Source of the DNA: a virus
Direction: 5' to 3' (one strand)
Length of the DNA stretch: 42,950 bases
IMG/VR virus record: IMGVR_UViG_3300032245_000811
Location: 1-42,950 of that record
Shown here: piece after piece, positions 1-39,907 of the stretch
Layout of the letters: each line of letters begins with the position of its first letter
How positions within the stretch are numbered: position 1 is the stretch's first letter
Position numbers and translations under genes: made by a program
Notes under the pieces: model-generated
Databases searched by the model: none
Seen by the model: only the letters and a program-made list of their open reading frames with translations
Told to the model about the DNA's origin: nothing

Positions 1-123
1 CCAAAGCCATTATGGGCTACTGTTGTCTCCATGAGACCTAGCGTCTTTGACGATGTAGTGTCTGTATCGTAGTCTGCTAGAGCAACAGTGACGTTAGTTC
101 CGGTGGCACCTGAGACGTACACA
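1..123. repeat. terminal direct repeat, left copy (circular closure)
   Basis: These 123 bases are identical to 42828-42950. The repeat lies inside the tail-fibre reading frame, and the frame continues correctly when the ends are joined. This is what an assembler leaves when it walks round a circular or circularly permuted molecule. A short physical terminal repeat is possible but less likely, because it would cut through a virion gene. Confidence 0.95.
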
Positions 124-700: not shown

Positions 701-722
701 TATATATATCCAATCTTGTCAA
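701..722 (-). promoter_or_regulatory. TTGACA/TATATATA element, copy 2
   Basis: Read on the minus strand this is TTGACAAGATTGG followed by ATATATATA. It matches 8965-8986 at 20 of 22 positions. TTGACA overlaps the stop codon of the metallopeptidase gene, and the AT tract ends 20 nt before the fibre ATG. TTGACA is a perfect sigma70 -35 box, but the TATA tract begins only about 8-12 nt later, so the normal 17-nt spacer is missing. It is probably a promoter of the virion block; the type is not known. Confidence 0.55.
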
Positions 723-1105
723 GTGTTGGATGCAGGGAGGAGCTTGGCGACCACGTTAGACAGGTGGTCTGCCGCCCTTTCTACCTCAATTTCGTACAGA
801 TTCTGCAGCAAAGCATAGGCTTCGGTTCCAATTACCCCGTCAAGTGACTCAATAACCCGCTCTGCCCCTGCGTAGCTGACATGAAGCAGCTCATGTGCCA
901 CGATCCGGCGCTTCTCATCGAATGGTAGCGTCCAGAAATCGCTAGAAACACGAAGAGTAGCCGACCAAAGGTTGTCTGAGACCTCAATATCTGCCCAGTT
1001 GTCCTCTTCCGTTGGGTGTTTTGAGACCTTTACCGCCCACTGGGTGAGGCCCATGACGTTAAGTGACTTGTTTACGTAGTTCTGGAGCTCGTCAAGAGTG
1101 TCCAT
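719..1105 (-). CDS. putative zinc metallopeptidase (HExxH)
   Basis: This is a 128-residue protein with the motif AHELLHVSYAG at about residues 70-80, followed about 25 residues later by YEIEVERAADHL, which could supply the third zinc ligand (Glu). This arrangement is typical of gluzincin or SprT-like metallopeptidases. There is no signal peptide or membrane segment. The ATG overlaps the stop of the giant gene (TAATG), so the two are coupled and probably work together. Possible roles are trimming the giant virion protein or other virion proteins, or acting in the host after injection. The family is inferred from the motif only. Confidence 0.65.
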   Translation of the reverse strand: MDTLDELQNYVNKSLNVMGLTQWAVKVSKHPTEEDNWADIEVSDNLWSATLRVSSDFWTLPFDEKRRIVAHELLHVSYAGAERVIESLDGVIGTEAYALLQNLYEIEVERAADHLSNVVAKLLPASNT

Positions 1106-4100
1106 TAGATCCCCTCTAGCATCTTAGCCTGTCCAAGTGCGGTTGAAGTGTCCACCGGAGCAGCAGCCTGCACTTGTTGTGGCTGCTGAGGCGTGCTTAC
1201 AGGCATCTGAACCTGTGGTTGCGGAGCTGCTTGGCCTACATTTGCAGGCATTGGGGCACTGTGGTCTCCAGCAATCGCTGAATATAGTGTATCTGCAGCC
1301 ATCCAGCCGGCTGTGCTGCCAGCTAGGCCACCTGCAAACCCACCAACTGGGCCTCCAACGAGTCCAGCTGCGCCGCCAATGAAGCCGCCGGCTAGTGAGC
1401 CAGCCATCCCAGTAAGCGCACGGAGCATATCACCGCCCTGAGTGTATGTCAACCCTAGGCCCACTGCGGCAGCTGGCGCCCCACCTACGGCATGGCTAAG
1501 GACTTCGAACCCAGCCTGGATTGGAGCTCCGGCAAGGGCCATCTTTTTCTCTTCTTCGTTCTTGGCGATGAGGTAGGCACCAAGTGTACCGGCAATTGTG
1601 CCCCCGGCAATGGCGCCTTTTGTGCTGATCTTAGGCATCCACTTGCCCCTGACCTCAGGAAGCCCAGCAGTGCCAAGCGCCTCCGCAGCAACCGTGGCTT
1701 CTTGCCTATGCTTGAGGATCTGCTCAAGGTGCGCAGCCATCTGCTCTGCCTCAACTGGGTTAATGCCCGTGTTCCCGCGTCGCAGTCTGCTAATGAAGTC
1801 CTTAACTACTGGGTTGCCCCTGAACGCTTCCTCTTCCCACGAGTACTTGTGCCAGTTAGCGTCCTTCAACGTGAACGGACCGGCTGCATGCTCAAGGGAT
1901 GCATCAAGCTTACGCAACTTGAACCCACCAGTCTCTGGGTCTACCTCGAATGGGTTGTTGCTGCGCCACTCTTGAGGTACTGCCACCTCTCTGGCTGCCT
2001 GATCTACGCCTGAACGACGCAAGACTACGTCAAACATCTGGGCAAACCTTGCGCGGATAGCTGCGTCAAACATCTTATACGCGACAAACCTGCTACCGAA
2101 CTGTCCCTTTGCCTCAATAACCGGATCGTCAATAGCCTTAAGCAGGTCGTCCCATGTCAGGCCACGCTTTAGGATAACATCAAACTCTTGCTGGGTGATC
2201 TCGCCTTCTGCAAGCATCGTTGCGTATAGTCCCATGATCTCCTTGGCCATTGGGACTCTGCCGGTCATGTCTACGTCAAACGGCTGCGCCTTGGCCTTCT
2301 GCTGGTTTGGAGCAAGCGAGCCCTCAACAAGGCCGCCACCCCTACGGACAACCTGGAAGATATCGGATACGCCAAGCTCCCTAAGTGTGTTCTCCATTGC
2401 GTCAGCAGTCACAGTGCTGGCACGTCCTGCAATACCCTCATTGAACATGTAGTCGCTATCGAACGATGATCCCTTAGCATTGTACGGTGTAGGCGCCTCT
2501 TTCTGGCTGGCCCAGTACTGTCCATTTTCGCCCTTCTTAGGCGCAGTTGCGACAAGAACCCTGCGTACCTTAGCTTTTCCAATAGTCTCAGGAGATCCAA
2601 GCCAGAAGCCTAGTTTCTTAGTAGAGTCAACCTCTGGGTTATCGTTGACTCGTGTTACATACTGCATAATAGTTACAAGCTGATTATAGGCCTCTGGGCT
2701 AAGTTTATCCTCGTTTTGCCGTAGGAAGCTGGCAAACTGTTCGACTGGGATAAAGTCTTGGACAACACTTTTTCTAGTGTACGAGGTTTGAAGATTTGGA
2801 TTTGGGATAGAAACTTCTGGTCTGAGATGCACATCTGCGCCGGCATCGTTCTTGTACGAAAGAAGGTCAGATGGGATTTGCAAAACTCCGTCATTGTCGA
2901 AGACAATGTTCATTCCCTGAGCGATAGACTTACCGTTCGAGTTGCCAAGGCGCAGGTACGAGTCCAGCGTCTTCACAATGCTGTCGTAATCACCGTCTGC
3001 TGCCATGTGCTGCGAGAGCAGCATCCACGTTTCGTCTCGCAGCTCTGCAAGCTGCTCCGGAGTTGCGCTCTTAATGTACCGCTCGATTGCAGATCCAAGA
3101 GGGCGGATTGCATCTGTGGCTACCGGCTTGGCCTGTGGTGCAACAACATCTGGCGTTGGTGTAGTGTGCTTCTCAGCGTAGGCAAGTCGAGCAGAGGCCT
3201 CAGAAACAAGGCGCTTCTTTGTCTCGAGCGCCTGCTGAGCAGCATACTTCTCAGGCTGTGTCTTGGCATTCTTGAGGTCTGCTTGTGCCGACTTGAGAGA
3301 TTCCTTGGCATTAGCTAGTGTCTGACGTGCAGTCTCAATTGCGTCAGGATACTTCTTTACTACTCCCTTTTGCGACTCTCTAATTGCAACCATCGGGTCA
3401 ACGACTGCAGCTTTCTTTGCTATGGCAAGGTTCTTCTTGAGCTGCTCGATAGCTGCACCGCGCTCGTTGACAGGGAGCATCATGATTCGCTCAACCTCTG
3501 CAACTGTGACCTTGGACTTCTGGAACTCTTCCGCAGGTGCCGGCTGATCGACCTCCCTTTGGAATGTTTCCTCGCTCATCTGAGCGTCGTCTTCCAGCTG
3601 TTGGTAGATCTTATCGATGCTTACTGCCATCTCCGGATCTGCTGATCGTTCAAGCAAGAGCGAACGTGCAATCTCCTTCGCAAGGTTGCGCGCAGTCTCG
3701 TGCGTGCTGGTGTCGCCCTTTGACTTGATTGCGTCATGCTTTGCCTGAGCCTCTCGAAGGTTGGCGTATGCTTCGTTCATAAGCGCAACTCGGCCTTCCT
3801 CGGTAAGAGCTTCAGGGCGGTCTGGGTATTGAGTTGGAAGTTGCATATCCATAAGCCTGCGGAGTGTTTCCTGCGCAGCGCGTACGTTGCGAGCTGCCTT
3901 TCTCTCTTCTGTGTCGAATGAGAATAGTCCCTCACGCGTGCTGGCTTCGCGCATGTTCGAGTCGTAAACCTTCTTGAAGATAGACACAATCGGTTCGGCT
4001 GCAAGCGGGTCGTCGTTAAGTTCGCGCAAGATATCGTTTACAGCGATAGAGGCAAACGCCGGGCTGGCTACGCGCTGTGCATGGCTAAATAGGATATCCC

Positions 4101-7100
4101 TGTACTGGCCTGGCTTAGTTGCCGCGGCAAGCCTCTTCGTGCGAGCTAGAGCAAGCTCCCTGAACAGAGGAGAAGCATTGCCTGCGTCTGCCTGTCGCAT
4201 GCGTGCAGCATCTGTAGCTCGAGCGCGAAGCAACCAGACGTAGTCAGCAAGGAACTCAGCCCTCTCAGCCATGACTGCCTCTGGGAGAGGGGTATCACCT
4301 GTGGTCTCACGGAGAATGTCCATGGACGGAGCTGGCTCGTTGGCTGGAAGCACTGGGCTTACCGGCTCTGCCATTGGCTCATACCCAGCGGCACGAACTC
4401 GAGCTGTCTCGCGCTTCGCCTTGCTTGTTGCAGCCGCCTGGGCAATCGTGCTGTCTACAATGTCTGCCCGGATTGGCTGGCCGAAATGATTTTCTGCAAG
4501 ACCCTGGAGAACAAGGGCCTCGTAGTCCATCTCTCGGTCGCTAAGCAACCTAGATGGTAGCCCCTGCTCCTGCTTGGCCGTAACCGATGCGCCAGTCTCG
4601 CCGGCGTACGCAACTTGCTGAGGAATAGCCGAAGGGGCGTATTCACTTTGCTGTACCATTTCTGGCATGAACAATTGTTTAATGAACGGCTTGCCTGTTT
4701 CAGGATTGATTACCCTCTGCTCCTGTGGAATATCGACTCGGGCTCCACGCTTGTACGGGTATGTGTTCATATCTCCGACCACATCTCTCAAATCGATCTG
4801 CCCTCGTCGCAACATGTCGTACTCTGGTTCTGACAGGAGGCGCTCGATTAGGTCAACACCGTCTACAGTGAGACCAGGGGCAACCTCACTTGCGATAGCA
4901 AACCTAATGCCATCTTCGTATAGATAGTTGTATGAGAAATCGTCGAACACGTGCGTGGTTGGAAGGCCGTTCTCCATGATAACGTTTCCGTATTCATCAA
5001 ATGTATACGTTGTGCCGGTTCTATCGTCGTAGTGCTCATCTAGAGAAACCTTCGGTGTCTGGTCGTAACCGTCAAGATCTGCAGCCGTAAGCTCTCGTTC
5101 TCCACCACCGTCAGCATCTTCGTAAACAATGGTACCAATGTCTGCTGGACTTAGCTCTTCAATGACGTTACCATCGCCATCAAACAGGACATCCGTCAGG
5201 CTGAAAGACTCATCAAGCTCCGGCGTGACGTACTGCGGAATTGCCGGTACGTATGTGCCCTGGAATGCGCGGCCATCTGCCATGACGAGAGGGGACGTAT
5301 GCCTGAACGTCTGGTGGACAATCGGGTCAATATCTACCTTAAAGTAACCTTCTCTTTCGCCTGGCCATCTAACTTGATCTCCAAGATTAAATGGCTCTGT
5401 AATGATACTTCTTGCAAGCTCTGGATCTGTTTTAATTTTTTCTACAACCGGATCTCCTTCAAAGAACGCCATAGTGATTGAATCTGCTTCATAGTAAATC
5501 TTTCGGCCTTCAATCTCAATGAACGTGCCGCTTGCGTCCGATTGCGTCTTATATTTTTCAGAACCGATCTTTAGAATTCCGGTAAGCGGATCAATCCATC
5601 CAGGAGGATCAGTGATTGGCAGAGACATTGCAACGATTCTCTTGTTAATCCTGCTTCGGAGTCCATCTCGAGTTTTAATGACGCTAGCAGCATCGCGAGT
5701 GTATGGAATGATATGGTCGATAATAGTTTCGTAATCAGTTGTTCCATGGCGAAGACCGCCCATCTCTTTGCCAAGCAAGGCCTTGATAGCCTTGTTTAGT
5801 CTGGCCTCCTTTGTGAAAGACCTTTGCAGTGGAGGAATAGACGCGCTAGGATCTGTTGATACGTGGAATGCAATGGATGCCCGTGAAGTATTTACTCCAG
5901 AATTATAGAGTCCCTCGTATCCATCAGTGCTAAACCTATTCTGGAATCCCTCGAACTCATCGCTAACAAGACCGCGCTCGTCAAGGTCCATCCACCCCTG
6001 CGGGACAAGCCCATCCATGTCCATGACATAGCGGCGATACCCTGGATTGGTGTCGACAGTTCCACCGTATAGCGATGTCTCCTGGTGCACGTCGTATTCG
6101 AACCCAGGCTTACCATTGATCTTCCAGTACTCATCAATAGATGCAGGGTCAGTCAATCGCTTGATTTCAAGATACCTGGCAAGTGGATCATCAGAAAGAT
6201 GCTCTGTGGCTGCCATGATCTCAGTGCTGGCCTTTACGAACGTACCAGGGATTTCTGCGTCAAACAAACTTCTTCGATATGGGCTATACGTCCTAGCTCC
6301 TTCTCGAACTCCGGCCTTTGCTCGAGTCCTCTGCAACTCTGCTGTGGCTGGCGCCATGTCCTTGGTTCGGTCTCTACCGACGATTTCGCTCTGCATGTCG
6401 GACTCAAGACCGCGAAGAAGCATTGTAAGAGTATGAACCGGCAAGGCAATATCAGGATGGTCAGCATACTTCCGGAGCTTTGCCCACCGCTTTGACAGCG
6501 CCTCGACCCTTCGGTCTAGCTCAAGATCGGCTTCGTCGTGTAGTTTTTGAATTTTCTCTTCAGGGTCCTGGTTCAGCGCAAAGCGTGGTCTGTACTTGTA
6601 GTCACCTGCAAACGTCTCTTCCGGAACGCCAAGAGCCTTAAGGGCTTGCAGCACAACTTTATCTGCTGGATTTGCCTTTGGTCCGACTCCCTTCCAGAAC
6701 GCCTTAAACAGTCCATCATGTCGCAGCATAGATAGACCGGCTTCCATATTCGCGTCAGGGGCAATGCCGAATTTTGTCTCAACCTTGCCTCTCTTAACAC
6801 GCGAAGATTCCCAGAATGGGTTAGGAATTCTGGGCTTACTTCCGTCTTCAGGGAACATTGCATCATATTCTTGCTGCGACATACCGACTCCGAGCGCTTC
6901 TCCAAGTCCTTGCAGCTGAGCCGCGCTAGCAAGGATGTGCTCTGGCAGGATGGCCCTCTTGGCAATGCCAAGTAGCTTGCCCTGACGGATAACAGTGATG
7001 GTCCTTCGCGCCCTGGCTTGCCCGCCATATTCGCCGGACGTGCCTTGGATCTCACTCTGCAGTTTATCCATCTGCGACATCGAGTCGGCCTCTACCCGAG

Positions 7101-8862
7101 CGGTAGTAACCATTCGGTCGCGGGCCTCACGCCTAACCGCCTTCGCCTCTTGAACGCCTTGGTACTTTGCAATGCGCTCCGGCTCTGTGTCGTCTGGTCG
7201 GATCTTTCGAATGTCCAGGTGGAACTGCTTGGCATCTGGGTGCCAGCGCTTGTGCTCTCGCACTGCGTGGCCTGTGCCGCCGTCGTTCGGGCCATTAGGG
7301 GTTGGGTCAAACGAAAGAGTAATCATGCCGCTAGTTGCATCCTGAGCAATCCAGCGATTGCGTGCGATAAACGAGCTGATCTCTGTGTCGCTGCTGCGCG
7401 TCGGGCTGGCGCCGTTGCCAAATGTGACTACTGCCCCCTTGTCGATAGCCTGCTGCAGCTGTGCGATAGTGTCGCCAGGCTGCAGGCCAAGAGCTTTCGC
7501 AAACTGGTCGTGGTACAGGTTCGCCGTGCTACCAGATGTCATGAACCCGAGGTTGTCGAACTGAAGTCGTGGCGTCTCGCCAGGCACTTCCTTCATCATC
7601 AACTCGCCAGGCAGGTGTAGAACAAGGCCGCCGACTTTACCGTCGAGGAATAGTTGCACTGCCACGTGGTCAGACCAGGCGGCGCCGCCGGAAATCAGGA
7701 CGTCTGTCGGCCGCACAGTGCGGCTAACGCGATCCACCATAGCGTTAAAGTCATCCGCCGTAAGTCGAGCCCCGTCTTGGCCGCGTCCTGCTGTGCCAAC
7801 TACGGCAAGGTAGCGCTCGCCCTTAGGTAGGGTGTAGGCAGGCCGGTCTGGCCAGCGGCTGTTTGTCGACTTGTCGCTGGCGAACTCTGTCTTCTTGCCC
7901 TTACCCTTCTTTGGGGCCACCGGTTCCGCGGGGGTCGTCGCCGTTGTTAGTTTTTGGAGGGTCTGGTCCCCCACCGCAGGAGCCTCTGGGAGGCCGATTT
8001 CCGCCACGCTGGGCTTCGTTTCTGGGGTTCCTGGTGTCTTAGCACCCCCCACCGCATCAGCGACGCTCACGGACGTGTCTGTGGGCTTGATTACCTCTGA
8101 CGCCTGGGTGGGCTTGACGTCGGCTGCGCCGTAGATCCTCTTGCCGTAGGCGCTAGCCTCGTAGCCTTCTGAGGCGGCAAGCTCAGCGATGGGCCGAGTG
8201 GTCGTCTCTCCCGTAGCGCGGTTGAGCAGTACAGCCTGCCCGTCTGCCGTGCGCCCCTGGATTCGGTAGTTGCCCTTGACGCGGATGACCGCTACGGCCT
8301 TACCTTCCTTCGTCATGACCAGCATCTCACCAGGCCGGTACTCGTAGTCGTACTCGCGGCTAGTCGCCGTGCGTGTGCCCTTGATGACCTTGTCTGCGTT
8401 GCTGGTCTCGTCGCCAGGAACAGCCGGTGGCAGGGCTCCCTTCACGCCGGCCGTGTAGTCCATAGCCATGCGCTTCAGCTTGCGACCCTGGGTTAGTTCC
8501 TCGATCTGCTTGACTGCCTCTGGTTTAGAGAGGTCAGCTACGAGCTCGTACTCTAGGAAACTCTTGTACCCGGTTGTTACTGGCAGGAGGTCGGCTGGGG
8601 CCTCTGGAGCAGCAGCGGGCAAAGAAGTACCCCCAGCTGCCGGAGCGGAGGGGGCGGCAGCAGCTGGGGGCGTAGCGGCCGGTGCCTGGGAAGGAACAGG
8701 CGCCGGTGTAGCAACAACGGGCTTAGCCGGTGCCTCTGGGGCTGCCGGCTGTGGGACGTCGAACTCGGGCATGGACGACTGGACCTGCTGCTTGATCATC
8801 TCAAGCTTGGCCAGGATGTCCTGTGGGTCTAGTGGGCCTGGGCGCTTCTTTTGTTCTGCCAT
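1105..8862 (-). CDS. giant virion-associated (polyvalent-like) protein with SLOG-like domain
   Basis: This 2585-residue protein takes up 18% of the genome. The start ATG at 8862 has GGTGGGAG upstream. Residues 1-110 are Ala/Pro-rich and likely disordered. Residues about 350-545 look like a SLOG (DprA/LOG-type nucleotide-binding) domain: a hydrophobic strand then VVGTAGRGQDG, then ISGGAAWSDHVA, FIARNRWIAQDA and NDGGTGHAV, in the order expected for the family. Residues about 1820-1895 are a Lys/Ala-rich coiled coil. Residues about 2405-2530 are Gly/Ala-rich and hydrophobic and could insert in a membrane. The tail is Pro/Gln-rich. The rest is not recognised. It starts the virion block, so I infer a protein carried in the particle and injected, like known polyvalent proteins. 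No lysozyme or RNA polymerase motif was seen. Confidence 0.85.
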   Translation of the reverse strand: MAEQKKRPGPLDPQDILAKLEMIKQQVQSSMPEFDVPQPAAPEAPAKPVVATPAPVPSQAPAATPPAAAAPSAPAAGGTSLPAAAPEAPADLLPVTTGYKSFLEYELVADLSKPEAVKQIEELTQGRKLKRMAMDYTAGVKGALPPAVPGDETSNADKVIKGTRTATSREYDYEYRPGEMLVMTKEGKAVAVIRVKGNYRIQGRTADGQAVLLNRATGETTTRPIAELAASEGYEASAYGKRIYGAADVKPTQASEVIKPTDTSVSVADAVGGAKTPGTPETKPSVAEIGLPEAPAVGDQTLQKLTTATTPAEPVAPKKGKGKKTEFASDKSTNSRWPDRPAYTLPKGERYLAVVGTAGRGQDGARLTADDFNAMVDRVSRTVRPTDVLISGGAAWSDHVAVQLFLDGKVGGLVLHLPGELMMKEVPGETPRLQFDNLGFMTSGSTANLYHDQFAKALGLQPGDTIAQLQQAIDKGAVVTFGNGASPTRSSDTEISSFIARNRWIAQDATSGMITLSFDPTPNGPNDGGTGHAVREHKRWHPDAKQFHLDIRKIRPDDTEPERIAKYQGVQEAKAVRREARDRMVTTARVEADSMSQMDKLQSEIQGTSGEYGGQARARRTITVIRQGKLLGIAKRAILPEHILASAAQLQGLGEALGVGMSQQEYDAMFPEDGSKPRIPNPFWESSRVKRGKVETKFGIAPDANMEAGLSMLRHDGLFKAFWKGVGPKANPADKVVLQALKALGVPEETFAGDYKYRPRFALNQDPEEKIQKLHDEADLELDRRVEALSKRWAKLRKYADHPDIALPVHTLTMLLRGLESDMQSEIVGRDRTKDMAPATAELQRTRAKAGVREGARTYSPYRRSLFDAEIPGTFVKASTEIMAATEHLSDDPLARYLEIKRLTDPASIDEYWKINGKPGFEYDVHQETSLYGGTVDTNPGYRRYVMDMDGLVPQGWMDLDERGLVSDEFEGFQNRFSTDGYEGLYNSGVNTSRASIAFHVSTDPSASIPPLQRSFTKEARLNKAIKALLGKEMGGLRHGTTDYETIIDHIIPYTRDAASVIKTRDGLRSRINKRIVAMSLPITDPPGWIDPLTGILKIGSEKYKTQSDASGTFIEIEGRKIYYEADSITMAFFEGDPVVEKIKTDPELARSIITEPFNLGDQVRWPGEREGYFKVDIDPIVHQTFRHTSPLVMADGRAFQGTYVPAIPQYVTPELDESFSLTDVLFDGDGNVIEELSPADIGTIVYEDADGGGERELTAADLDGYDQTPKVSLDEHYDDRTGTTYTFDEYGNVIMENGLPTTHVFDDFSYNYLYEDGIRFAIASEVAPGLTVDGVDLIERLLSEPEYDMLRRGQIDLRDVVGDMNTYPYKRGARVDIPQEQRVINPETGKPFIKQLFMPEMVQQSEYAPSAIPQQVAYAGETGASVTAKQEQGLPSRLLSDREMDYEALVLQGLAENHFGQPIRADIVDSTIAQAAATSKAKRETARVRAAGYEPMAEPVSPVLPANEPAPSMDILRETTGDTPLPEAVMAERAEFLADYVWLLRARATDAARMRQADAGNASPLFRELALARTKRLAAATKPGQYRDILFSHAQRVASPAFASIAVNDILRELNDDPLAAEPIVSIFKKVYDSNMREASTREGLFSFDTEERKAARNVRAAQETLRRLMDMQLPTQYPDRPEALTEEGRVALMNEAYANLREAQAKHDAIKSKGDTSTHETARNLAKEIARSLLLERSADPEMAVSIDKIYQQLEDDAQMSEETFQREVDQPAPAEEFQKSKVTVAEVERIMMLPVNERGAAIEQLKKNLAIAKKAAVVDPMVAIRESQKGVVKKYPDAIETARQTLANAKESLKSAQADLKNAKTQPEKYAAQQALETKKRLVSEASARLAYAEKHTTPTPDVVAPQAKPVATDAIRPLGSAIERYIKSATPEQLAELRDETWMLLSQHMAADGDYDSIVKTLDSYLRLGNSNGKSIAQGMNIVFDNDGVLQIPSDLLSYKNDAGADVHLRPEVSIPNPNLQTSYTRKSVVQDFIPVEQFASFLRQNEDKLSPEAYNQLVTIMQYVTRVNDNPEVDSTKKLGFWLGSPETIGKAKVRRVLVATAPKKGENGQYWASQKEAPTPYNAKGSSFDSDYMFNEGIAGRASTVTADAMENTLRELGVSDIFQVVRRGGGLVEGSLAPNQQKAKAQPFDVDMTGRVPMAKEIMGLYATMLAEGEITQQEFDVILKRGLTWDDLLKAIDDPVIEAKGQFGSRFVAYKMFDAAIRARFAQMFDVVLRRSGVDQAAREVAVPQEWRSNNPFEVDPETGGFKLRKLDASLEHAAGPFTLKDANWHKYSWEEEAFRGNPVVKDFISRLRRGNTGINPVEAEQMAAHLEQILKHRQEATVAAEALGTAGLPEVRGKWMPKISTKGAIAGGTIAGTLGAYLIAKNEEEKKMALAGAPIQAGFEVLSHAVGGAPAAAVGLGLTYTQGGDMLRALTGMAGSLAGGFIGGAAGLVGGPVGGFAGGLAGSTAGWMAADTLYSAIAGDHSAPMPANVGQAAPQPQVQMPVSTPQQPQQVQAAAPVDTSTALGQAKMLEGI

Positions 8863-28141: not shown

Positions 28142-31100
28142 TTATGGGGTCTTTGATTTAAACAACTCGTCCAAAGTTGAACCAGTTGTTTCCAACGCGC
28201 CTAGCGGACCAATCGACGTGATGCTCCTTGCGAAGTCCTGGTTAAGGACTGCACCCGGGCTCCAGTCGGTACCGTTCGCCATGCGCTTATATAGATTGCG
28301 TGCCCATGCTGGTGGTACAGCTGTGACGTCCCATGGCACGCCTGGGAACATCATGGTCAGCATGTATACAGAGTTAGGATGCTCGTCAAGCCAGATGCCA
28401 ATACCTGGGTTTGTCTCCAGCTCGTACTCGAAATAGTCTCGTACGTGCATGTAGGCGGAGTACCCAGCCATCGGGGCCTGCGCACCGAACGGTCGCTTGA
28501 AGAGGAACTCGATCATCTCTGGAAGGATCTTCTTGAACATGTAGCTATATGGGTACATCGCCAGCCCCGGATGGTTAATCGTCCTTTCAAAGAATGACCG
28601 AGCAGATGGGAAGTACGTAGTCTTGTTGGCCTGGTCGAGAGCCATGGTGTACGCGTATTGGAACGCGTTATACACAGTCTCCTCTGCGCCGTGACGAGTT
28701 ACTACTGAGCTCATGCCATTGCCAAACTTAACTGCTAGGTCAGGCTTGTCTGCCACGCGTCGAACCATCTCGGCCTGTACCCCATCGCGGAACGCCTTAC
28801 CGTCTTTGATTGGATCTACTCCGCCACGGACGATTGAGTTCACTACGTCGTTTACTTCGTCAACGATATACTGGATATCTGTACTGAAGCCCTGGCCGAC
28901 GAGCATTGCCTCAAGGATCTTGCCGGTATGTGGATCAACGCCAAGCGGATCGGTGAAGTGCAACTGCGTGGCTAGGGACTCAAGTGCGCTGCGCTTGTGC
29001 TGCAGAAGCACCCAGTCTCGTCCGATCTTCTGCATGTCAGCATGGAAGGTCTTCTGGGCAGCCTTGACCATGTCAAGTGTTTCTTCCTTCATGTCTCCTG
29101 TGCTCTTTAGCTCACCCTCTGCGCGACGCAAAGCATTGCGTAGGTTGTTGGCAGAGTCAGAGAATCGAGATGCGTCGTAACCGGCATCAGCAAGGCTAGA
29201 CACATGCTTGTCCAGCGTGGCCATGTGCAGGGCCGGGTTAGCGAGGAGTTGCTCCTGCAACTGCGCCTGCGTAAGGATGCCTGCGCCTTGTCCAAGCACC
29301 TGCTCCTCAGAGGCAAACCGACCGCCGGTGATTAGCTCGCGTTGCGCATCGGCCCAAGCCTGTCGCTCAGGGTCTGGGATACGGCCGAATCCTACGCCTG
29401 CCGGGCGTGACACTTCGATGTCGTTCCATACTCGTCGAGGATCGCTGAGTCGCAAGCGGTAGTTTACGTAGTTAGTAAACATTGCTCGTGAGTCTGACGT
29501 TCCGTACTGTTCGACCAGAGCAGACCAGAGGTTGAAGTCTTTCTCACGCATAGTGTCAGAGAAAGTCTTTGCGGTGATGTCAAGAGCAAGCGCATCTCGA
29601 GCAGCCATCTTCCTATTAGCCAGGTCGTCGAGATGGCGGCCCTGCTTGAGGTTCTCCCATACGCCAGCCTGCATTACGATGTCATCGTACCGTCCGGTCA
29701 TAGCCTGTGCTACTGCGTCCTGCCGGAAGACAGCCATGAAGTTAGCGTTGTCTACGAACGACTGCGTCTCAGGCCCAACCTTAGTGAGATCCCGAAGCTG
29801 GCTTGCCGACACCATCTGTGCCTTCGTTCCGTCGGCCATCATGGAGAATACGGTGTCTCGGTCAACGCCACGTGCTGCATTTAGGATCGGGCTTTCAGCA
29901 TACTCCTGCAGCCAGTACAGTGGGTTCATTTTAAACTTAAGCGTTGGGTACCATTTGTCTGTCCACGCTGCAATCTGTGTCCCGAACTTACCTTCCTTTA
30001 GTCCGCCGGTAAAGTACTGCGTAGCTCCAACTACGTTGCGGTCGCCACGGAATGCAAACATGACTGCGTTCATTGGGTCAAACGTCTTGCCGAATGCATT
30101 GCCAGCAAAGTTATTAACAAACTGCTTGTACGTACCGGCTCCACCAACTTCATCGATAGCCTTCTTAAAGGAATCGGATACAGTCTTAGGAGATAGGCCC
30201 CTAGCAGATACTCCTTCTTGTACACCGCGAGCTACCAGTTCGTCGAGCACAGCGTCAACATGCTCTTGCCCAAGTCCGCCGCGTACAAGGTACGCTGCCA
30301 ACCTACGTCGAATTGAGTTAGTAACATACTTCTGTGGGATTGGTGAGAACAGGTTGTTCATGAACTTCTGGATTGTGTTTGGGTTATAATCCAGAATAGC
30401 CTTGCCGTTCTTCTGTGCAATCTTCTGCAGTCCGCTAGTAGACATATCAACAAACGGCATGACCTTGCTGGCCCACATCTGCCTCTGCCCAGGGGTTGAA
30501 CCAGGCATCTCAAGCAGCGCAGGCTTGTAGATCATGTTGTTCTCAGGTGCACGCACCAACCGGTACGCACCGCTATTGAAGGTGCGCACAATGTTTGGGT
30601 CTTTGCCAACCAGACGAAGTGCCTGCTCGATAGCGGAGAGATGGCGGTCTGAGAATCGGTTAACCGCAAGCCCGCTATCTACTGCTTCACGCAGGTACTT
30701 GTTGATCTGATCTGCATTCTTTAGGTCGCCGTGCACAATGCGGACGTCATCGAATTGTTCGGTTGCTCGCTTGGTCCAGGCAAGGCGAGCCTCGTCAAGA
30801 TTCTTAGCACCGCGCACGTCAGAGATAATATCCTTTAGGACCTTGTTGTATTCCGATCCCTCGACGTTGCTGGCCAGTGCGTTGTTCAGACGCTTAAGCA
30901 GCTTCTCTACCTCTTTCGCACCACCCTGTCGGTCAAACGCTCGTACTACGCGTCCATCCTGGGCAATGGTATCTGCAGATGTAGCAGCGCCAAGACGCTT
31001 CTCTGCTGCCTTCTCTAGAGATGCTGTGATCTTTGCCAAGGCGCTGTAGGCGTCAAGGAATGCAAGAGCCTTGTCCCTGAAGATATGGCCGCTAGATACA

Positions 31101-33154
31101 ATGTGAATCTTACCGGTCTTCTCAAAGATGGAACGGAGAGTGTCGACAGTCTGCTTGCCAAACCGCTGGGTCAGCGCGGTGGTGTTGCCGTTCATGATGT
31201 CATCAACAAAGGTGTTGTACATTGCTGCAGTCTTGGTAGACGTAGCATATCCTGTCGACTCTACTAGCAGCATTCGCTCAGCTGCCTCGCTTGCCGAATC
31301 AGCAGACTTGAGGAATCCATCAGGGGTGTAAAGGTCACCAAACGTTTTCTCAAACCATGAGTCAAACTGTGGTGCAACTTCCTCAAAGCTATGACCCATT
31401 GAGTTAACCAGGCTTGTAACGTGCTGTCGGGCTGTCGTCATGGCCTGAGCCTTAGATCCTACTTTGGCAACCAGCCTAATCTTTGTTCCCTGGATCTCAT
31501 CGACCGTCGCCCTGGAGAATTCAGCAAGTCCGCCCTCCTTGACCTTGCCAACCAGTTTGTTTTCGTATGTAATGCCGGATGCTCGCATAGCACCTAGCTC
31601 GCTGGCGTTCATCTGGCTCTCGATAAAGTTGCCAAGCTGTTTAATTTGAGGGAGCGCACGGCGTCCCTCCTTGGTTGCAGCTGCAACAGGATCGACATTT
31701 CGCAGGAACTCTACGCGGCTGCGGAGTTCGCTGATGCTGCCGGTATCAAACAGCTTGACAACGCCTGTGTCTGCGAAGACTGGGTCTTTGGCGATTGATC
31801 GCATCTCGTCCACAACCTCTTCGGTAGTGAACTTAACAGCAGCTCCGCTGCCGCGCTGCAGGATAAGTCTGTCAATGGCATCGTAGTAAAGTTTGCCGAT
31901 CTGTTCTGCTGCGTTGATGGCACGGTACTTGTTGCTACCGTTCATGATATGCTCTGTTCCAATGATGCCAAAGTTTGCCAGGCCCCTACCAGCCATGTTC
32001 TTAACTTCGTCGGCCTTGCCAAGGTGTTCAACAATACCGCTCAGCCCGGCCACATCCTCGTTGAGTTTGCCGCCAAGCTCCTTATAGACTCCGTGCCAGT
32101 TGGCTCCGAATAGTCCAGCTCCCATTCGCTTAAAGCCTTCGCCAAGTCCATCAGTTGCAGTCTTATATACGTCATACATTCCGGCGAGTACGCCTTCGTC
32201 CATGGCCTGTGATGCCTCAATTGCCTTCTTGGCTGTTGCGATCTGCTCTTCGGCAATGGCAATCCCTTCAGAGTTGCCAGCTTTCCTTGACATCTCAAGG
32301 CTCTTCTCAGCGTTTGCAATAGCTGCCTTGGCGTCTCTTCCGATGGCAAGTTTCTGGCCAAGGTTGAGACCTCGCTGCTTGTTGAGAATGACTGCCGCCT
32401 TCTGTGCGGAAGACAGTTCAGGAACCTCATCAACAACAGCCTTTCCTGCGTTGATCAGACCCTTGGCAGTCTCGAGACGTGCAAGCTGCGACTCAGCTGC
32501 GGTGGCAAACTTGCCAGCCTTACGTGCTGCAGCAAACCCGCCAGCTACAAGGCCAGGCAAGAACCCAACGCCGCCTGTTACGGCGCCTGCAGCCAGTGCA
32601 CCAGTTGTAGCACCTCCGACTGCGGCCAAAGGCTTCAGCATTCCAACCTTACCGAATACTGCTGGGGTAAAGTTAAGTGGATCGGTGAGCATCGTGAACA
32701 GCAAGTTAGCATCCTGGTTGTTTGACCATGCGCGCTGAGACTTGATCATGTAGTCAACGATAGCTCCGGTATCAGTCCCTGCATTGAGCATGTTCTGAAT
32801 GTCGGTAGGAAGATCCTGCCGACCTGTAACCTTGAGCCGCACGTTAGCAGCAAGGTTTGCAAGTATCTCGCTCGGGAGTGCTGCAAGCTGTAACCCTGCA
32901 CCGATTGCACCTCCGACCGGAGTCTTGCTGATGAAGTCAGCGGTTTCTCCAAGAAGAGGGATCTTGCTACCAATGTCAAACCCAGTCTTGATTACATCCT
33001 TGATACCGGCGCCCATGTTTGCAGCGAGCTGCTCGTCAGGGCGCAGCCCATTGAGCTTATCGTTACCACCAATATCAAGGCGGAACGCTAGATCGCGTCC
33101 GCTGATATCAGTGCTAGGTGGCCTGGTTGTGCTGGAGTAACCGACTAGTGGCAT
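28142..33154 (-). CDS. large virion protein, 1670 aa (ejection-type)
   Basis: A 1670-residue protein, start ATG 33154 overlapping the previous stop (TAATG). Residues about 172-216 are Gly/Ala-rich and hydrophobic (LAAVGGATTGALAAGAVTGG), able to enter a membrane. The N-terminal 500 residues are helical, with coiled-coil parts (LEMSRKAGNSEGIAIAEEQI). The C-terminus is aromatic-rich (YMFKKILPEMIEFLFKRPFG). No enzyme motif was found. Its size and its place between portal-side and scaffold genes suggest an internal protein ejected into the cell. A tape measure is less likely, since those follow the capsid gene. Confidence 0.65.
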   Translation of the reverse strand: MPLVGYSSTTRPPSTDISGRDLAFRLDIGGNDKLNGLRPDEQLAANMGAGIKDVIKTGFDIGSKIPLLGETADFISKTPVGGAIGAGLQLAALPSEILANLAANVRLKVTGRQDLPTDIQNMLNAGTDTGAIVDYMIKSQRAWSNNQDANLLFTMLTDPLNFTPAVFGKVGMLKPLAAVGGATTGALAAGAVTGGVGFLPGLVAGGFAAARKAGKFATAAESQLARLETAKGLINAGKAVVDEVPELSSAQKAAVILNKQRGLNLGQKLAIGRDAKAAIANAEKSLEMSRKAGNSEGIAIAEEQIATAKKAIEASQAMDEGVLAGMYDVYKTATDGLGEGFKRMGAGLFGANWHGVYKELGGKLNEDVAGLSGIVEHLGKADEVKNMAGRGLANFGIIGTEHIMNGSNKYRAINAAEQIGKLYYDAIDRLILQRGSGAAVKFTTEEVVDEMRSIAKDPVFADTGVVKLFDTGSISELRSRVEFLRNVDPVAAATKEGRRALPQIKQLGNFIESQMNASELGAMRASGITYENKLVGKVKEGGLAEFSRATVDEIQGTKIRLVAKVGSKAQAMTTARQHVTSLVNSMGHSFEEVAPQFDSWFEKTFGDLYTPDGFLKSADSASEAAERMLLVESTGYATSTKTAAMYNTFVDDIMNGNTTALTQRFGKQTVDTLRSIFEKTGKIHIVSSGHIFRDKALAFLDAYSALAKITASLEKAAEKRLGAATSADTIAQDGRVVRAFDRQGGAKEVEKLLKRLNNALASNVEGSEYNKVLKDIISDVRGAKNLDEARLAWTKRATEQFDDVRIVHGDLKNADQINKYLREAVDSGLAVNRFSDRHLSAIEQALRLVGKDPNIVRTFNSGAYRLVRAPENNMIYKPALLEMPGSTPGQRQMWASKVMPFVDMSTSGLQKIAQKNGKAILDYNPNTIQKFMNNLFSPIPQKYVTNSIRRRLAAYLVRGGLGQEHVDAVLDELVARGVQEGVSARGLSPKTVSDSFKKAIDEVGGAGTYKQFVNNFAGNAFGKTFDPMNAVMFAFRGDRNVVGATQYFTGGLKEGKFGTQIAAWTDKWYPTLKFKMNPLYWLQEYAESPILNAARGVDRDTVFSMMADGTKAQMVSASQLRDLTKVGPETQSFVDNANFMAVFRQDAVAQAMTGRYDDIVMQAGVWENLKQGRHLDDLANRKMAARDALALDITAKTFSDTMREKDFNLWSALVEQYGTSDSRAMFTNYVNYRLRLSDPRRVWNDIEVSRPAGVGFGRIPDPERQAWADAQRELITGGRFASEEQVLGQGAGILTQAQLQEQLLANPALHMATLDKHVSSLADAGYDASRFSDSANNLRNALRRAEGELKSTGDMKEETLDMVKAAQKTFHADMQKIGRDWVLLQHKRSALESLATQLHFTDPLGVDPHTGKILEAMLVGQGFSTDIQYIVDEVNDVVNSIVRGGVDPIKDGKAFRDGVQAEMVRRVADKPDLAVKFGNGMSSVVTRHGAEETVYNAFQYAYTMALDQANKTTYFPSARSFFERTINHPGLAMYPYSYMFKKILPEMIEFLFKRPFGAQAPMAGYSAYMHVRDYFEYELETNPGIGIWLDEHPNSVYMLTMMFPGVPWDVTAVPPAWARNLYKRMANGTDWSPGAVLNQDFARSITSIGPLGALETTGSTLDELFKSKTP

Positions 33155-36003: not shown

Positions 36004-38412
36004 TTATTCTCCTTGCTGTGGCACGCCGCCTTGAGCAGCCTGCAACATTGACATTAGATCAGCTCCACCACCCTGCGCGTTCTGCGGCAGGGATTCCTGT
36101 GGCGGCATAGCTGCCTCGCTTGGCGAGTTCAGCATCTCCATACCACCGGCCGGAGGGTTCATGCTAGCCATGGCCTCCATCGCGCTATTGCGCCCAGCTT
36201 CCGCTTGAGCCTGTGCGGCCTGCGGAGCCTGTTGCTGCATCTGGTTGAACATCTGGATGAGAGCACCCATCGTCTGCACAGCAGCCGGGTTGAGCGTTGC
36301 ATCTGTCTGCTCGTCTCGAATGAGGTCCTTCTCGCCCTCTGGGTCATTGACGCCCATGCGGTCCATGGCACGCTCAGCAGACCAGAGTCGGTTCTGGACC
36401 AGGTTGATGGCGGTCTGTGCAAGCTCAATCGTGTCTCGCGGAGTGAGCTCCGGAGGTGTGATAGCAAGCTGGTACTCGCCGTCGATAATGTTGGACACTG
36501 CCTTGTCCTTGATCTCCCACATTCGTGCGCACGTCTCCCAGACCTGGTTGATCCAGCTGTAGAGGAGCTTGCGCTTAGGAGAGATTCGTGCCTCGTAGTT
36601 GGCCATGAGCTGAGCGATAGCGCGGCTTGAGCCAAGAACGCTGGATGGCGCAAGGCCAAGCAGGAGTTCGTTGAGGCCGGAGGCTACAGCAAGTTCGCGG
36701 TCGATGCGCTTGTTGTAGTCCTCAACCTGGAACTGTGGGATGAACGGGTTGATCGACTCAATGCGGTTCCCTGCCCCTGGAGTAGATACCTGGTTAGGCT
36801 TGGGGATTGCGTTGGCCGGTACCTCGTCCGGTGCGTCTGGACCAACGAGCTGCCACATCTGTCCGCCAACGACTGAGTGGATCATCTGCGCCTGGGCGGT
36901 GATCTTCTCATCCTTCTCGCGGAGGAGTTGCTCGATGTCGTAAAGCTCTGGCTTGCCATACGGGCTGCCAGGGATCATGCTGTTCCTGAGTACAACGTAA
37001 GGGATAGCCCCCTCAAGTTCAGGATGCTCGCTGCGCTTGACGACAGTGTTGCCGACGATGATGACGTTGCAGACAAGCGGTGGCTTGCCTGGCTCGGTCG
37101 GGTGTTTGTACCAGTAGTCGAGAACCTCGATCTTCATCTGGTCGTATGCCGTCTGATATCGGATAGGATCTCGGTGATAGCTGTTCAGGTAGATGCTGGC
37201 GATAGGGTCATCGTGCGTGCTAGCAGATGTGTATGGGAACCACTTGTTCCCGTCATTTACAGGGATAACGTCAACGCCCCACTCTTCGAGCACAGCCTGT
37301 GGCGACAGGCCGTAGCTGTACAGCGCCCAGTCCACACGGCTGTAGTCAGAACTTCCATACCCAAGGTATAGGTTCTCTGGCGTGTCGACGATCTGGACAC
37401 GCGGCATCTTCTTTACCGGGTCCCAGTATACTTTGGCTGCAGTGGTTCCGTAAAGCGACTTGAGAAGGCAGGCTTCCTCGAGCCTGAGATCCATGTCGTT
37501 GCTGTCCCACCATGCGTAGAGCAGTCGCTCGCGTCGGTTGGCAGCATCTCGCTCCGGCATATCCGGACCAGTAGGGACATAGTTCACTACCGGGCTTACA
37601 GCCTGAAGCGACGCCGGGATGTTTACATAGGCTGCATGAAGGTTGACAGAAACGTGCGAGCGGCCTGAAAGCCGTGCACTTGGGTCCTCTGCCCAGTGGT
37701 CTGCACCGCCAAGGGTGAACGTGTTAGGGTGGTAGTAATGGTCGAACCGTCGGTAGATAGCACGCATCCGGTTCTGCTCAGGCTCGACAAGTTGCTTGCG
37801 GTTCATAGCCTCAAGTACGAGCATGTAGTCCTCGTTCTCTTCAGCAACCTGGCCAAGCTGGTTGAGTCGCTGGCGCTCGAGGGAGATGCTCCTCTTCTGC
37901 TGGTCTGTAAGGGCAGTTAGACTGGCGAACTTAGGAGTAATCTTTGCAGATCGTACCTTGCCGCCAGAGATGACGACATCGTTGATCGTTCGGCCAGCAC
38001 CGGCCTTAGTGGTCCTTCCGTTGGCAATGGCGCTAGGTCGATTACCACGCTTACGGCCCTTAACCTGTGCAGGCTCGAGCTCTGTCTTGATTGTCCCGCC
38101 CTGGACATTAATAGGCTTCTTCTTGCCACGGATCTCATCGCGGGCGTTCGAGATGGCAGCCTTGATCGCACCAATAGACGGATTGGGCGAATCAGTGTTT
38201 GCCGTCTGGGCCTCGGTCTTGATGAATCCACCTGGCACATTGACCTTAGGTTTCGACCCGCGCACCTGGCGGCGGGCTTCTTCAGTGTTCTTCTTGATGG
38301 CAGCAAGCTGTGCTGGTGTCGCAATCGTAGGGTCAGTCGTGTACAGCGAAGGCTGTGGCTTACCGTCTACGAAAGAGCCAGGTAGCTTCCTAATGCCCTT
38401 CCCTTTAGCCAT
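36004..38412 (-). CDS. portal protein
   Basis: An 802-residue protein from ATG 38412, with GGGGAG 8 nt upstream and an 8-nt overlap with the terminase. The N-terminus is basic and repetitive (GGFIKTEAQT, GGTIKTELEP). From about residue 190 it follows the podovirus-type portal layout, with ENEDYMLVLEAMNRKQLVEP, YAWWDSNDMDLRLEEACLLK, ELYDIEQLLREKDEKITAQA and a C-terminal Met/Gln/Ala-rich tail (FNQMQQQAPQAAQAQAEAG). The order terminase-portal supports the call. Confidence 0.85.
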   Translation of the reverse strand: MAKGKGIRKLPGSFVDGKPQPSLYTTDPTIATPAQLAAIKKNTEEARRQVRGSKPKVNVPGGFIKTEAQTANTDSPNPSIGAIKAAISNARDEIRGKKKPINVQGGTIKTELEPAQVKGRKRGNRPSAIANGRTTKAGAGRTINDVVISGGKVRSAKITPKFASLTALTDQQKRSISLERQRLNQLGQVAEENEDYMLVLEAMNRKQLVEPEQNRMRAIYRRFDHYYHPNTFTLGGADHWAEDPSARLSGRSHVSVNLHAAYVNIPASLQAVSPVVNYVPTGPDMPERDAANRRERLLYAWWDSNDMDLRLEEACLLKSLYGTTAAKVYWDPVKKMPRVQIVDTPENLYLGYGSSDYSRVDWALYSYGLSPQAVLEEWGVDVIPVNDGNKWFPYTSASTHDDPIASIYLNSYHRDPIRYQTAYDQMKIEVLDYWYKHPTEPGKPPLVCNVIIVGNTVVKRSEHPELEGAIPYVVLRNSMIPGSPYGKPELYDIEQLLREKDEKITAQAQMIHSVVGGQMWQLVGPDAPDEVPANAIPKPNQVSTPGAGNRIESINPFIPQFQVEDYNKRIDRELAVASGLNELLLGLAPSSVLGSSRAIAQLMANYEARISPKRKLLYSWINQVWETCARMWEIKDKAVSNIIDGEYQLAITPPELTPRDTIELAQTAINLVQNRLWSAERAMDRMGVNDPEGEKDLIRDEQTDATLNPAAVQTMGALIQMFNQMQQQAPQAAQAQAEAGRNSAMEAMASMNPPAGGMEMLNSPSEAAMPPQESLPQNAQGGGADLMSMLQAAQGGVPQQGE

Positions 38413-39907
38413 TTGTATACTCCCCAAAATAACTGAACACCGGCTTGCTTACCGGGTTCGATGGATTTCTGACCGCATGCCGAACCGACAGGGCCAGCGC
38501 CATAACGGCGTCTGTGTCCATGTGCTTGTCATTGAGCTTGTATCCCAACAACTGCCTACGAAGCTCCATCCATGGGCCTCGACGAGGGAACTTCACCTGT
38601 CCACGGTCAATGACCGCCTTTAGGTCTGCCAGAAGCTCAAGCTTCTTAGCCCTCGTGCCGCCGAAGTCATAGTCCCTCAGTGGCTTGATAATGCTGAACT
38701 CCTGGCGGAATAACTTCCCGCCGAATCCAGTTGAGTCAATGGTGCTTGTGCATTGAGCACCGTCTTGGTTGTATAGCAGATGTCCCTCTCGTACCATGTT
38801 GACTACTGCAGGGATTGTCTGCTTGCCAATCTTCCTTCTGCAGCGAACTCCAACCATGATATCTCGCTCTGTGTAGTCGATAGTGATTGCCCACGTAGCG
38901 TCTGACGAGATGCCAGGATCAATGCCCTGTGAGTATCGCCTACCCTTAGTGGGAGGGAACTCTTCGTCAAGTTCTACGAAGCACTGATCCACCATCTCTG
39001 CGTTGAAGTAGGCATCTCTAGACTCAATGAAGTAGCCGTCGATGTTCTGTGGTACTAGGTATTCTGCCTGCTGCCGGAGGATGGATTCAAAGGTCTCTGA
39101 GTTTAGGCCGTACCCTACGTTGTCCCTGGTTGATAGCCTGAAGCTCATGAACTGGTCATCTCGGTTAGGGTTCTGTGGATTGCCTAGCTCCCACAGGTCT
39201 GCGTAGTCGTTGATACCCTCAGTTGGTGTGCCGATGAAGTGGAGTTGTCCGCCAGTTGAGAGTCGTCGCAGATTCAGAACCTCTTGATAGATCATCAGTA
39301 GGTGCGGTTCGAATGCTGCCTCGTCGAACGAGATGCCATTCATGTCCTTTCCCAGAAGAGCCTTAGCCTTATCTTGGGTGGTGCGGAAGTGGATGTTGGC
39401 CCCTCCGAAGATTGGGTCAACCTTGATCCACAGGTACTCGCCACGGTACTTCTTCTCGAAGTTATACACCGGGCCGATCTCTTTCACGATTGGGCATCCA
39501 CGGCCCTTTTGGGCTGGGTGGCCACCTTGAAGAAGCATGGCCAATTCTCTATGCACCAGTTCAGCCGTTTCCTGCTGAATGCCTACGTGATACCATTCGT
39601 AAGGCTCGGTAGTCCAACGCTCCGCGTCTTCGACGCTTCCCTGCGTTGGGGGGCGTAGCCCCAGCTTGTAGGTGGCAGAGTGCAGGACCCCAACAGCCAT
39701 CCCCAAAGTCTTACCGGCCCGGTTGCCGGCGCTGCATACAGTGGTCAGGTATTTAGGCCTGAACCCAGTCTCATCGCGGGCAACCATTCCGTTCAGCCAG
39801 GCCAGTTGGCCCGGGTTGAGATTAACACCTAGCCAGCGAGAGGCAAAGAAACCGATGTCGGTCCGACCTCTGGCCAGATCTTGGGCAATCTCAGCATTAA
39901 TGTTCAA
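38405..39907 (-). CDS. terL: terminase large subunit
   Basis: A 500-residue packaging motor. The ATPase has Walker A CSAGNRAGKT (58-67), Walker B with ISFDEAAF (D195, E196) and the coupling motif GTPTEG (226-231). The RNase-H-like nuclease has D330 in GIDPGISSD, D391 in TIDSTGFGG and D464/D466 in HMDTDAVMALAL. It cuts and packages the concatemer into the prohead through the portal. Overlaps of a few bases on both sides link it to the 101-aa basic protein and the portal. Confidence 0.95.
   Translation of the reverse strand: MNINAEIAQDLARGRTDIGFFASRWLGVNLNPGQLAWLNGMVARDETGFRPKYLTTVCSAGNRAGKTLGMAVGVLHSATYKLGLRPPTQGSVEDAERWTTEPYEWYHVGIQQETAELVHRELAMLLQGGHPAQKGRGCPIVKEIGPVYNFEKKYRGEYLWIKVDPIFGGANIHFRTTQDKAKALLGKDMNGISFDEAAFEPHLLMIYQEVLNLRRLSTGGQLHFIGTPTEGINDYADLWELGNPQNPNRDDQFMSFRLSTRDNVGYGLNSETFESILRQQAEYLVPQNIDGYFIESRDAYFNAEMVDQCFVELDEEFPPTKGRRYSQGIDPGISSDATWAITIDYTERDIMVGVRCRRKIGKQTIPAVVNMVREGHLLYNQDGAQCTSTIDSTGFGGKLFRQEFSIIKPLRDYDFGGTRAKKLELLADLKAVIDRGQVKFPRRGPWMELRRQLLGYKLNDKHMDTDAVMALALSVRHAVRNPSNPVSKPVFSYFGEYTNG

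What the first reader, a model, noticed from the sequence alone, without database searches (positions are those of the whole stretch)
1105..8862. 2585-residue protein with SLOG-like nucleotide-sensing domain
The giant protein at the head of the virion block has motif order VVGTAGRG, ISGGAAWSDHVA, FIARNRWIA, GGTGHAV near residues 350-545, as in SLOG domains that bind nucleotides in DNA processing and defence signalling. A nucleotide sensor carried into the cell could block or read host signals (for example anti-defence). Most of the rest is unrecognised and may hold more effector domains.
Basis: partly seen in the sequence, partly recalled or inferred. Interest (0 to 1): 0.65.

Follow-up and report, generated by a model that had tools for sequence, protein, structure and literature searches.

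The report
SLOG–ASCH cassette on giant phage protein
A 2585-residue protein encoded next to the structural genes of an uncultivated phage carries two small nucleotide-type domains near its start (a SLOG domain and a likely ASCH domain) that its relatives keep or swap, so it is probably a virion protein that delivers a nucleotide-binding or anti-defence module into the bacterium.

Summary
One minus-strand ORF (window 8862→1105, 2585 aa) carries all four motifs, in order, at residues 354-361, 390-401, 498-506 and 528-534. An AlphaFold model of residues 95-560 is confident for this domain. Its top PDB matches are ShosA and DprA proteins, with a LOG protein lower down; viral matches include phage SLOG proteins. 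So the SLOG reading is supported at fold level. The family, seen in about 60 phage, plasmid and bacterial loci, is not covered by a Pfam, PHROG or NCBIfam model.

Relatives swap parts of this N-terminal cassette (DUF7831, an unidentified domain, a possible zincin) but keep SLOG in every relative whose N-terminus is present. SLOG, parts of ASCH and a Gly-rich C-terminal segment are the best-conserved stretches. Gene order giant→128 aa→tail fibre→…→terminase-like→portal is conserved. The same SLOG, followed by ASCH, sits on a crAss-type virion RNA polymerase in another phage.

Best reading: a new SLOG–ASCH variant of the known "polyvalent" injected phage proteins. Presence in virions, injection, ligand and anti-defence role are inferred, not shown. 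Residues 557-2400 remain unidentified.

The parts
1105..8862 (-). Giant protein CDS, 2585 aa; domain coordinates below derive from it (residue r = 8862-3(r-1) down to 8862-3r+1)
   Evidence: relatives
8101..8574 (-). ASCH-like domain, residues 97-254 (KGTRTATSR motif, PGE, EGY)
   Evidence: Pfam ASCH E 0.0022; 19.3 bits against a cut-off of 21.2, E 5.4e-5 in the record search; mostly high pLDDT, beta-rich AF2 model; conserved in relatives
7825..8100 (-). Linker, residues 255-346; relatives L001, L002 and L016 carry extra domains here
   Evidence: low pLDDT; relaxed dN/dS 0.20-0.54; alignments
7195..7824 (-). SLOG domain, residues 347-556
   Evidence: AF2 pLDDT mostly 85-98; Foldseek matches ShosA, DprA, LOG, YspA/cpYpsA; family of about 60 loci
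7783..7797 (-). GTAGR motif, residues 356-360, loop after strand 1
   Evidence: 96-100% conserved
7666..7692 (-). SGGAAWSDH motif, residues 391-399
   Evidence: 96-100% conserved; partly the search seed
7357..7362 (-). RN motif, residues 501-502
   Evidence: 100% conserved
7273..7281 (-). GGT motif, residues 528-530
   Evidence: 92-100% conserved
1228..1662 (-). Gly-rich C-terminal segment, residues 2401-2545
   Evidence: 46-62% identity over residues 2451-2550 even to distant giants; phrog_167 tape measure E 0.0012 at 2374-2527
719..1105 (-). 128-aa gene directly downstream, always next to the giant in relatives

Best explanation
The protein is a phage 'polyvalent' virion protein. Most of it (about residues 557-2585) is a fast-evolving carrier ending in a Gly-rich segment, probably packed in the virion and ejected with the DNA. 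Its N-terminus (about residues 97-556) is a modular cassette with a fixed SLOG domain and a swappable partner, ASCH in this phage. On entry the cassette is exposed in the cytoplasm, where the SLOG domain binds (or cleaves) a nucleotide-type host signal, most likely an ADP-ribose derivative used by NAD-based defences, and the ASCH domain acts on RNA or a modified nucleoside. Shown: SLOG fold by prediction, likely ASCH, cassette swapping, purifying selection, conserved synteny, the same domain on another phage's virion-type RNA polymerase. Inferred: packaging, ejection, ligand, anti-defence effect.
For: AF2 model of residues 95-560: mean pLDDT 80, both domains mostly above 85, linker disordered. 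Foldseek PDB: ShosA E 2.9e-4; DprA (3maj, 5mll, 3uqz) and LOG protein TM1055 with probability about 1. Viral: YspA/cpYpsA SLOG of Gordonia phage GMA3 and a DprA-like protein. About 60 homologues in phages, plasmids and bacteria, mostly stand-alone 170-250 aa proteins. SLOG is kept in all 9 giants with an intact N-terminus found by a backbone-only search, while ASCH, DUF7831 and other domains vary. Conservation peaks are SLOG, ASCH segments and the C-terminus. Cassette GC 0.60-0.62 against 0.51-0.54 for the rest. Synteny. L028 matches the DNA-dependent RNA polymerase 6vr4 (E 8.8e-20) and carries SLOG then ASCH at its C-terminus; crassvirus RNA polymerase proteins were found in virions by mass spectrometry (PMC10172136). 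Injected polyvalent proteins are an established proposal (PMC5512222), and phage SLOG domains are proposed to sense or process ADP-ribose derivatives (PMC9503650).
Against: No virion proteomics. No clear transmembrane segment (maximum hydropathy 1.3). The carrier could not be folded (pLDDT 44) or matched. The best structural matches are DprA-type proteins, which bind DNA (own knowledge), not proven ADP-ribose binders. Sequence-level links to DprA and YAcAr are weak.
Confidence: 0.5

Rival explanations
1. The SLOG domain is DprA-like: it binds single-stranded DNA or ends of the incoming genome and protects or processes it; no nucleotide signal is involved.
For: DprA proteins and ShosA are the top PDB matches; the only profile-profile signal to DprA aligns the RN motif with DprA's RRNRIISG (E 0.008); plasmid and bacterial homologues are fused to UvrD helicases.
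Against: Most homologues are stand-alone without a DNA-binding partner; the profile match is short and weak.
Confidence: 0.22
2. The cassette regulates the carrier: SLOG senses a nucleotide and switches on an early activity of the giant protein, for example transcription or DNA entry.
For: SLOG and ASCH are also attached to a crAss-type virion RNA polymerase; PMC9503650 proposes that fused SLOG domains act as sensors.
Against: No polymerase or other enzyme is recognised in this carrier.
Confidence: 0.13
3. The protein is structural (tape measure or internal core) and the N-terminal domains are remnants or assembly aids with no role in the host.
For: Synteny and the tape-measure match.
Against: Motif residues are intact and under purifying selection; SLOG is better conserved than the carrier.
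Confidence: 0.1

Closest known systems
Polyvalent proteins of phages and conjugative elements (Iyer et al. 2017, PMC5512222)
   Same: Large multidomain protein encoded with the portal-terminase block, combining conflict-type domains; predicted to be packaged and injected
   Different: The words SLOG and ASCH do not occur in that paper's main text; here SLOG is the fixed element of the cassette
SLOG superfamily (DprA, LOG, YspA/cpYpsA; viral SLOG survey PMC9503650)
   Same: Predicted fold and the order of glycine-rich and RN motifs; phage occurrence; helicase fusions
   Different: Not covered by a Pfam, PHROG or NCBIfam model; embedded in a giant protein, whereas viral SLOGs are described as typically stand-alone
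crAss-like phage virion RNA polymerase (PDB 6vr4)
   Same: A related phage protein (L028) carries the same SLOG plus ASCH
   Different: The window protein has no detectable polymerase domain; its SLOG falls in a different supported group
ASCH domain (PF04266)
   Same: TRTATSR-type motif, beta-rich predicted fold
   Different: Scores just under the curated cut-off (19.3 against 21.2 bits)

Membership tests
SLOG superfamily | Rossmann-type alpha/beta fold matching known SLOG structures | tested here: met
   AF2 pLDDT mostly 85-98 and Foldseek top matches ShosA, DprA, later LOG; the table does not state which residues align, but only this half of the model is Rossmann-like
SLOG superfamily | Conserved residues after strand 1 and after a later strand | tested here: met
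   GTAGR and SGGAAWxDH nearly invariant
SLOG superfamily | Binds or cleaves a nucleotide | not testable with these tools
   no biochemistry
YAcAr/YspA SLOG family (PF10686) | Matches the family model | tested here: not met
   best 14.4 bits against 28.2; no match in eight records
LOG phosphoribohydrolases | PGGxGTxxE catalytic motif | tested here: not met
   sequence reads NDGGTGHAV; relatives mostly (D/E)GGTxxTW without the glutamate; motif definition from own knowledge
DprA | Profile match to DprA | tested here: inconclusive
   fold match; best profile E 0.008 over 31 columns
ASCH (PF04266) | Model score above curated cut-off | tested here: inconclusive
   19.3 against 21.2 bits, E 5.4e-5; E 0.0022 in hmmscan
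Polyvalent phage protein | Several conflict-type domains in one protein of the portal-terminase block | tested here: met
   SLOG plus likely ASCH; synteny
Polyvalent phage protein | Packaged in the virion and injected | not testable with these tools
   needs mass spectrometry of virions
crAss-type or N4-type virion RNA polymerase | Detectable polymerase domain | tested here: not met
   no Pfam or PDB match for the conserved carrier regions; most of the carrier could not be modelled
NADAR (PF08719), for the insert in relatives L001, L002, L024 | Matches the family model | tested here: not met
   no match at E 10; resemblance by eye only

The most novel reading that the evidence does not exclude
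Phages of several kinds load the same SLOG(-ASCH) module onto unrelated giant virion proteins, so that a neutraliser of NAD-derived immune signals enters the cell with the genome, before any phage gene is expressed.
Probability: 0.28. Interest if true: 0.78.

Novelty: new variant of a known kind. Interest (0 to 1): 0.52.

Why it matters
Many bacterial defences signal through NAD-derived nucleotides. A SLOG module carried in by the virion would act before transcription, unlike most known phage sponges, which must first be expressed. The family is small, conserved and stand-alone in many phages and plasmids, so it is easy to express and test, and its place on two unrelated giant proteins gives a concrete hypothesis about what virion cargo is for.

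Tried and rejected
Wrong-strand translation. Sequence search of the domain against PDB: nothing significant. AF2 of carrier residues 780-1390: pLDDT 44, Foldseek noise. Whole-protein Pfam: nothing significant. NADAR for the L001/L002/L024 insert: no family match. Profile comparison with DprA and YAcAr: first attempts used wrong reading frames or strands for some rows; the corrected DprA run is weak, and the YAcAr alignment had only three members. Tree: giant SLOGs other than L024 form one supported group and crAss-type ones another, but one origin is not ruled out, and one ASCH row was included by mistake.

Full report
Observation. The window is an IMG/VR virus record whose ends share an exact 123-bp repeat, so the genome is probably complete at about 42.8 kb. 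The ORF at 8862..1105 is on the minus strand and encodes 2585 aa.

SLOG domain. Pfam, PHROG and NCBIfam scans of the whole protein or of homologues gave no significant family, only weak YAcAr (E 0.034) and phrog_289 (E 0.0016) matches for one homologue. Translated searches found homologues at 30-40% identity in two cultured phages (Erwinia phage UCB24, Delftia phage RG-2014) and 14 plasmids. A profile search found 50 viral loci and 16 bacterial loci. Most homologues are stand-alone proteins of 170-250 aa; others are fused to UvrD helicases or lie in giant proteins. The AlphaFold model of residues 95-560, built on 55 sequences, has mean pLDDT 80, with residues about 345-558 mostly at 85-98. Foldseek against PDB ranks ShosA first (E 2.9e-4, probability 1.00), with DprA structures at probability about 1 and the LOG protein TM1055 at 0.97. 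The viral library returns a YspA/cpYpsA SLOG protein of Gordonia phage GMA3 and a DprA-like protein. Amino-acid kinases also appear in the PDB list with lower probability, as expected for Rossmann-like folds. The table does not say which residues of the model aligned.

ASCH domain. Residues 97-254 match Pfam ASCH at E 0.0022 and at 19.3 bits, E 5.4e-5, in the record search, just under the cut-off of 21.2. The predicted structure is beta-rich with high confidence, and the motif TRTATSR is invariant or nearly so in relatives, including a weakly similar domain behind the SLOG of L028. I treat this as a likely ASCH domain.

Modularity. L001 and L002 are about 88% identical to the window protein over the long C-terminal part but differ at the N-terminus. 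L001 has ASCH, an unidentified 169-aa domain, then SLOG; L002 has a region with a possible HExxH zinc-peptidase motif, the same 169-aa domain, then SLOG; L016 has ASCH, DUF7831 (E 2.3e-15), then SLOG; L017-L021 and L090 have ASCH then SLOG; L024 has SLOG followed by the 169-aa domain. The 169-aa domain looks NADAR-like by eye but no NADAR model matches it. In a search with the C-terminal region only, all nine giants with an intact N-terminus carry SLOG, so retention is not an artefact of searching with SLOG. Against distant relatives the best-conserved stretches are SLOG (36-64% per 50 residues over 351-450), parts of ASCH, and residues 2451-2550; most of the rest is 5-30%. dN/dS is 0.01-0.23 in SLOG and 0.20-0.54 in the linker. 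The cassette is richer in GC (0.60-0.62) than the rest (0.51-0.54), which fits acquisition as a module but does not prove it.

Delivery. The giant is followed by a 128-aa gene, the tail-fibre gene, two small genes, a 500-aa gene at the place expected for the terminase, and the portal, and this order holds in the relatives examined; several of them lacked a detectable tail-fibre match. The neighbours include a major capsid protein and an adaptor. The C-terminus weakly resembles a tape-measure family and is Gly-rich, but hydropathy shows no clear transmembrane helix. Independently, L028 is a 2576-aa protein matching the DNA-dependent RNA polymerase 6vr4 (E 8.8e-20) with the same SLOG at residues 2164-2318 and an ASCH-like domain after it. 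Crassvirus RNA polymerase proteins are detected in virions and thought to be ejected (PMC10172136). The presence of the module on two kinds of giant protein, one of a type known to be virion cargo, is the best indirect evidence for delivery. It is not proof for the window phage.

Mechanism. Published analyses propose that viral SLOG domains sense or process ADP-ribose derivatives made by host immunity and note helicase fusions (PMC9503650). I judge ADP-ribose-type ligands the most likely target, but the closest solved structures are DprA-like, and DNA binding is a serious rival. The LOG catalytic motif is absent, so LOG-type hydrolysis is unlikely.

Novelty. The 2017 polyvalent-protein paper does not mention SLOG or ASCH in its main text, and the 2022 survey describes viral SLOGs as typically stand-alone. 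Only three papers in the library hold both terms. Within that limited library, a SLOG cassette on a virion-block giant appears undescribed. It is a new variant of a known kind.

Limits. Residues 557-2400 remain unidentified. No experimental data were found for this phage, and its host is unknown.

Noticed in passing
window 1-123 and 42828-42950: Exact 123-bp terminal repeat; the record is probably a complete genome and the tail-fibre gene runs across the ends.
   Followed up: yes
L028:3512-11242: crAss-type virion RNA polymerase-like giant (2576 aa) with SLOG and ASCH-like domains at its C-terminus.
   Followed up: partly
L001:4725-5231, L002:872-1378, L024:8114-8575: Rare 169-aa domain that resembles NADAR by eye; no family model matches.
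   Followed up: partly
L002:359-751: Possible zinc metallopeptidase motif (HEYQH) in place of ASCH.
   Followed up: no
L005:9394-12774, L067:5442-8924, L073:5457-8954: SLOG domain fused to the C-terminal part of long proteins; L005 is annotated as UvrD helicase on a mobilizable Acidovorax plasmid.
   Followed up: partly
window 28142-33154, minus strand: A second giant ORF (1670 aa) between portal and capsid genes with no Pfam or PHROG match.
   Followed up: no
window 38405-39907, minus strand: 500-aa gene at the terminase position with no match among cultured phages.
   Followed up: no
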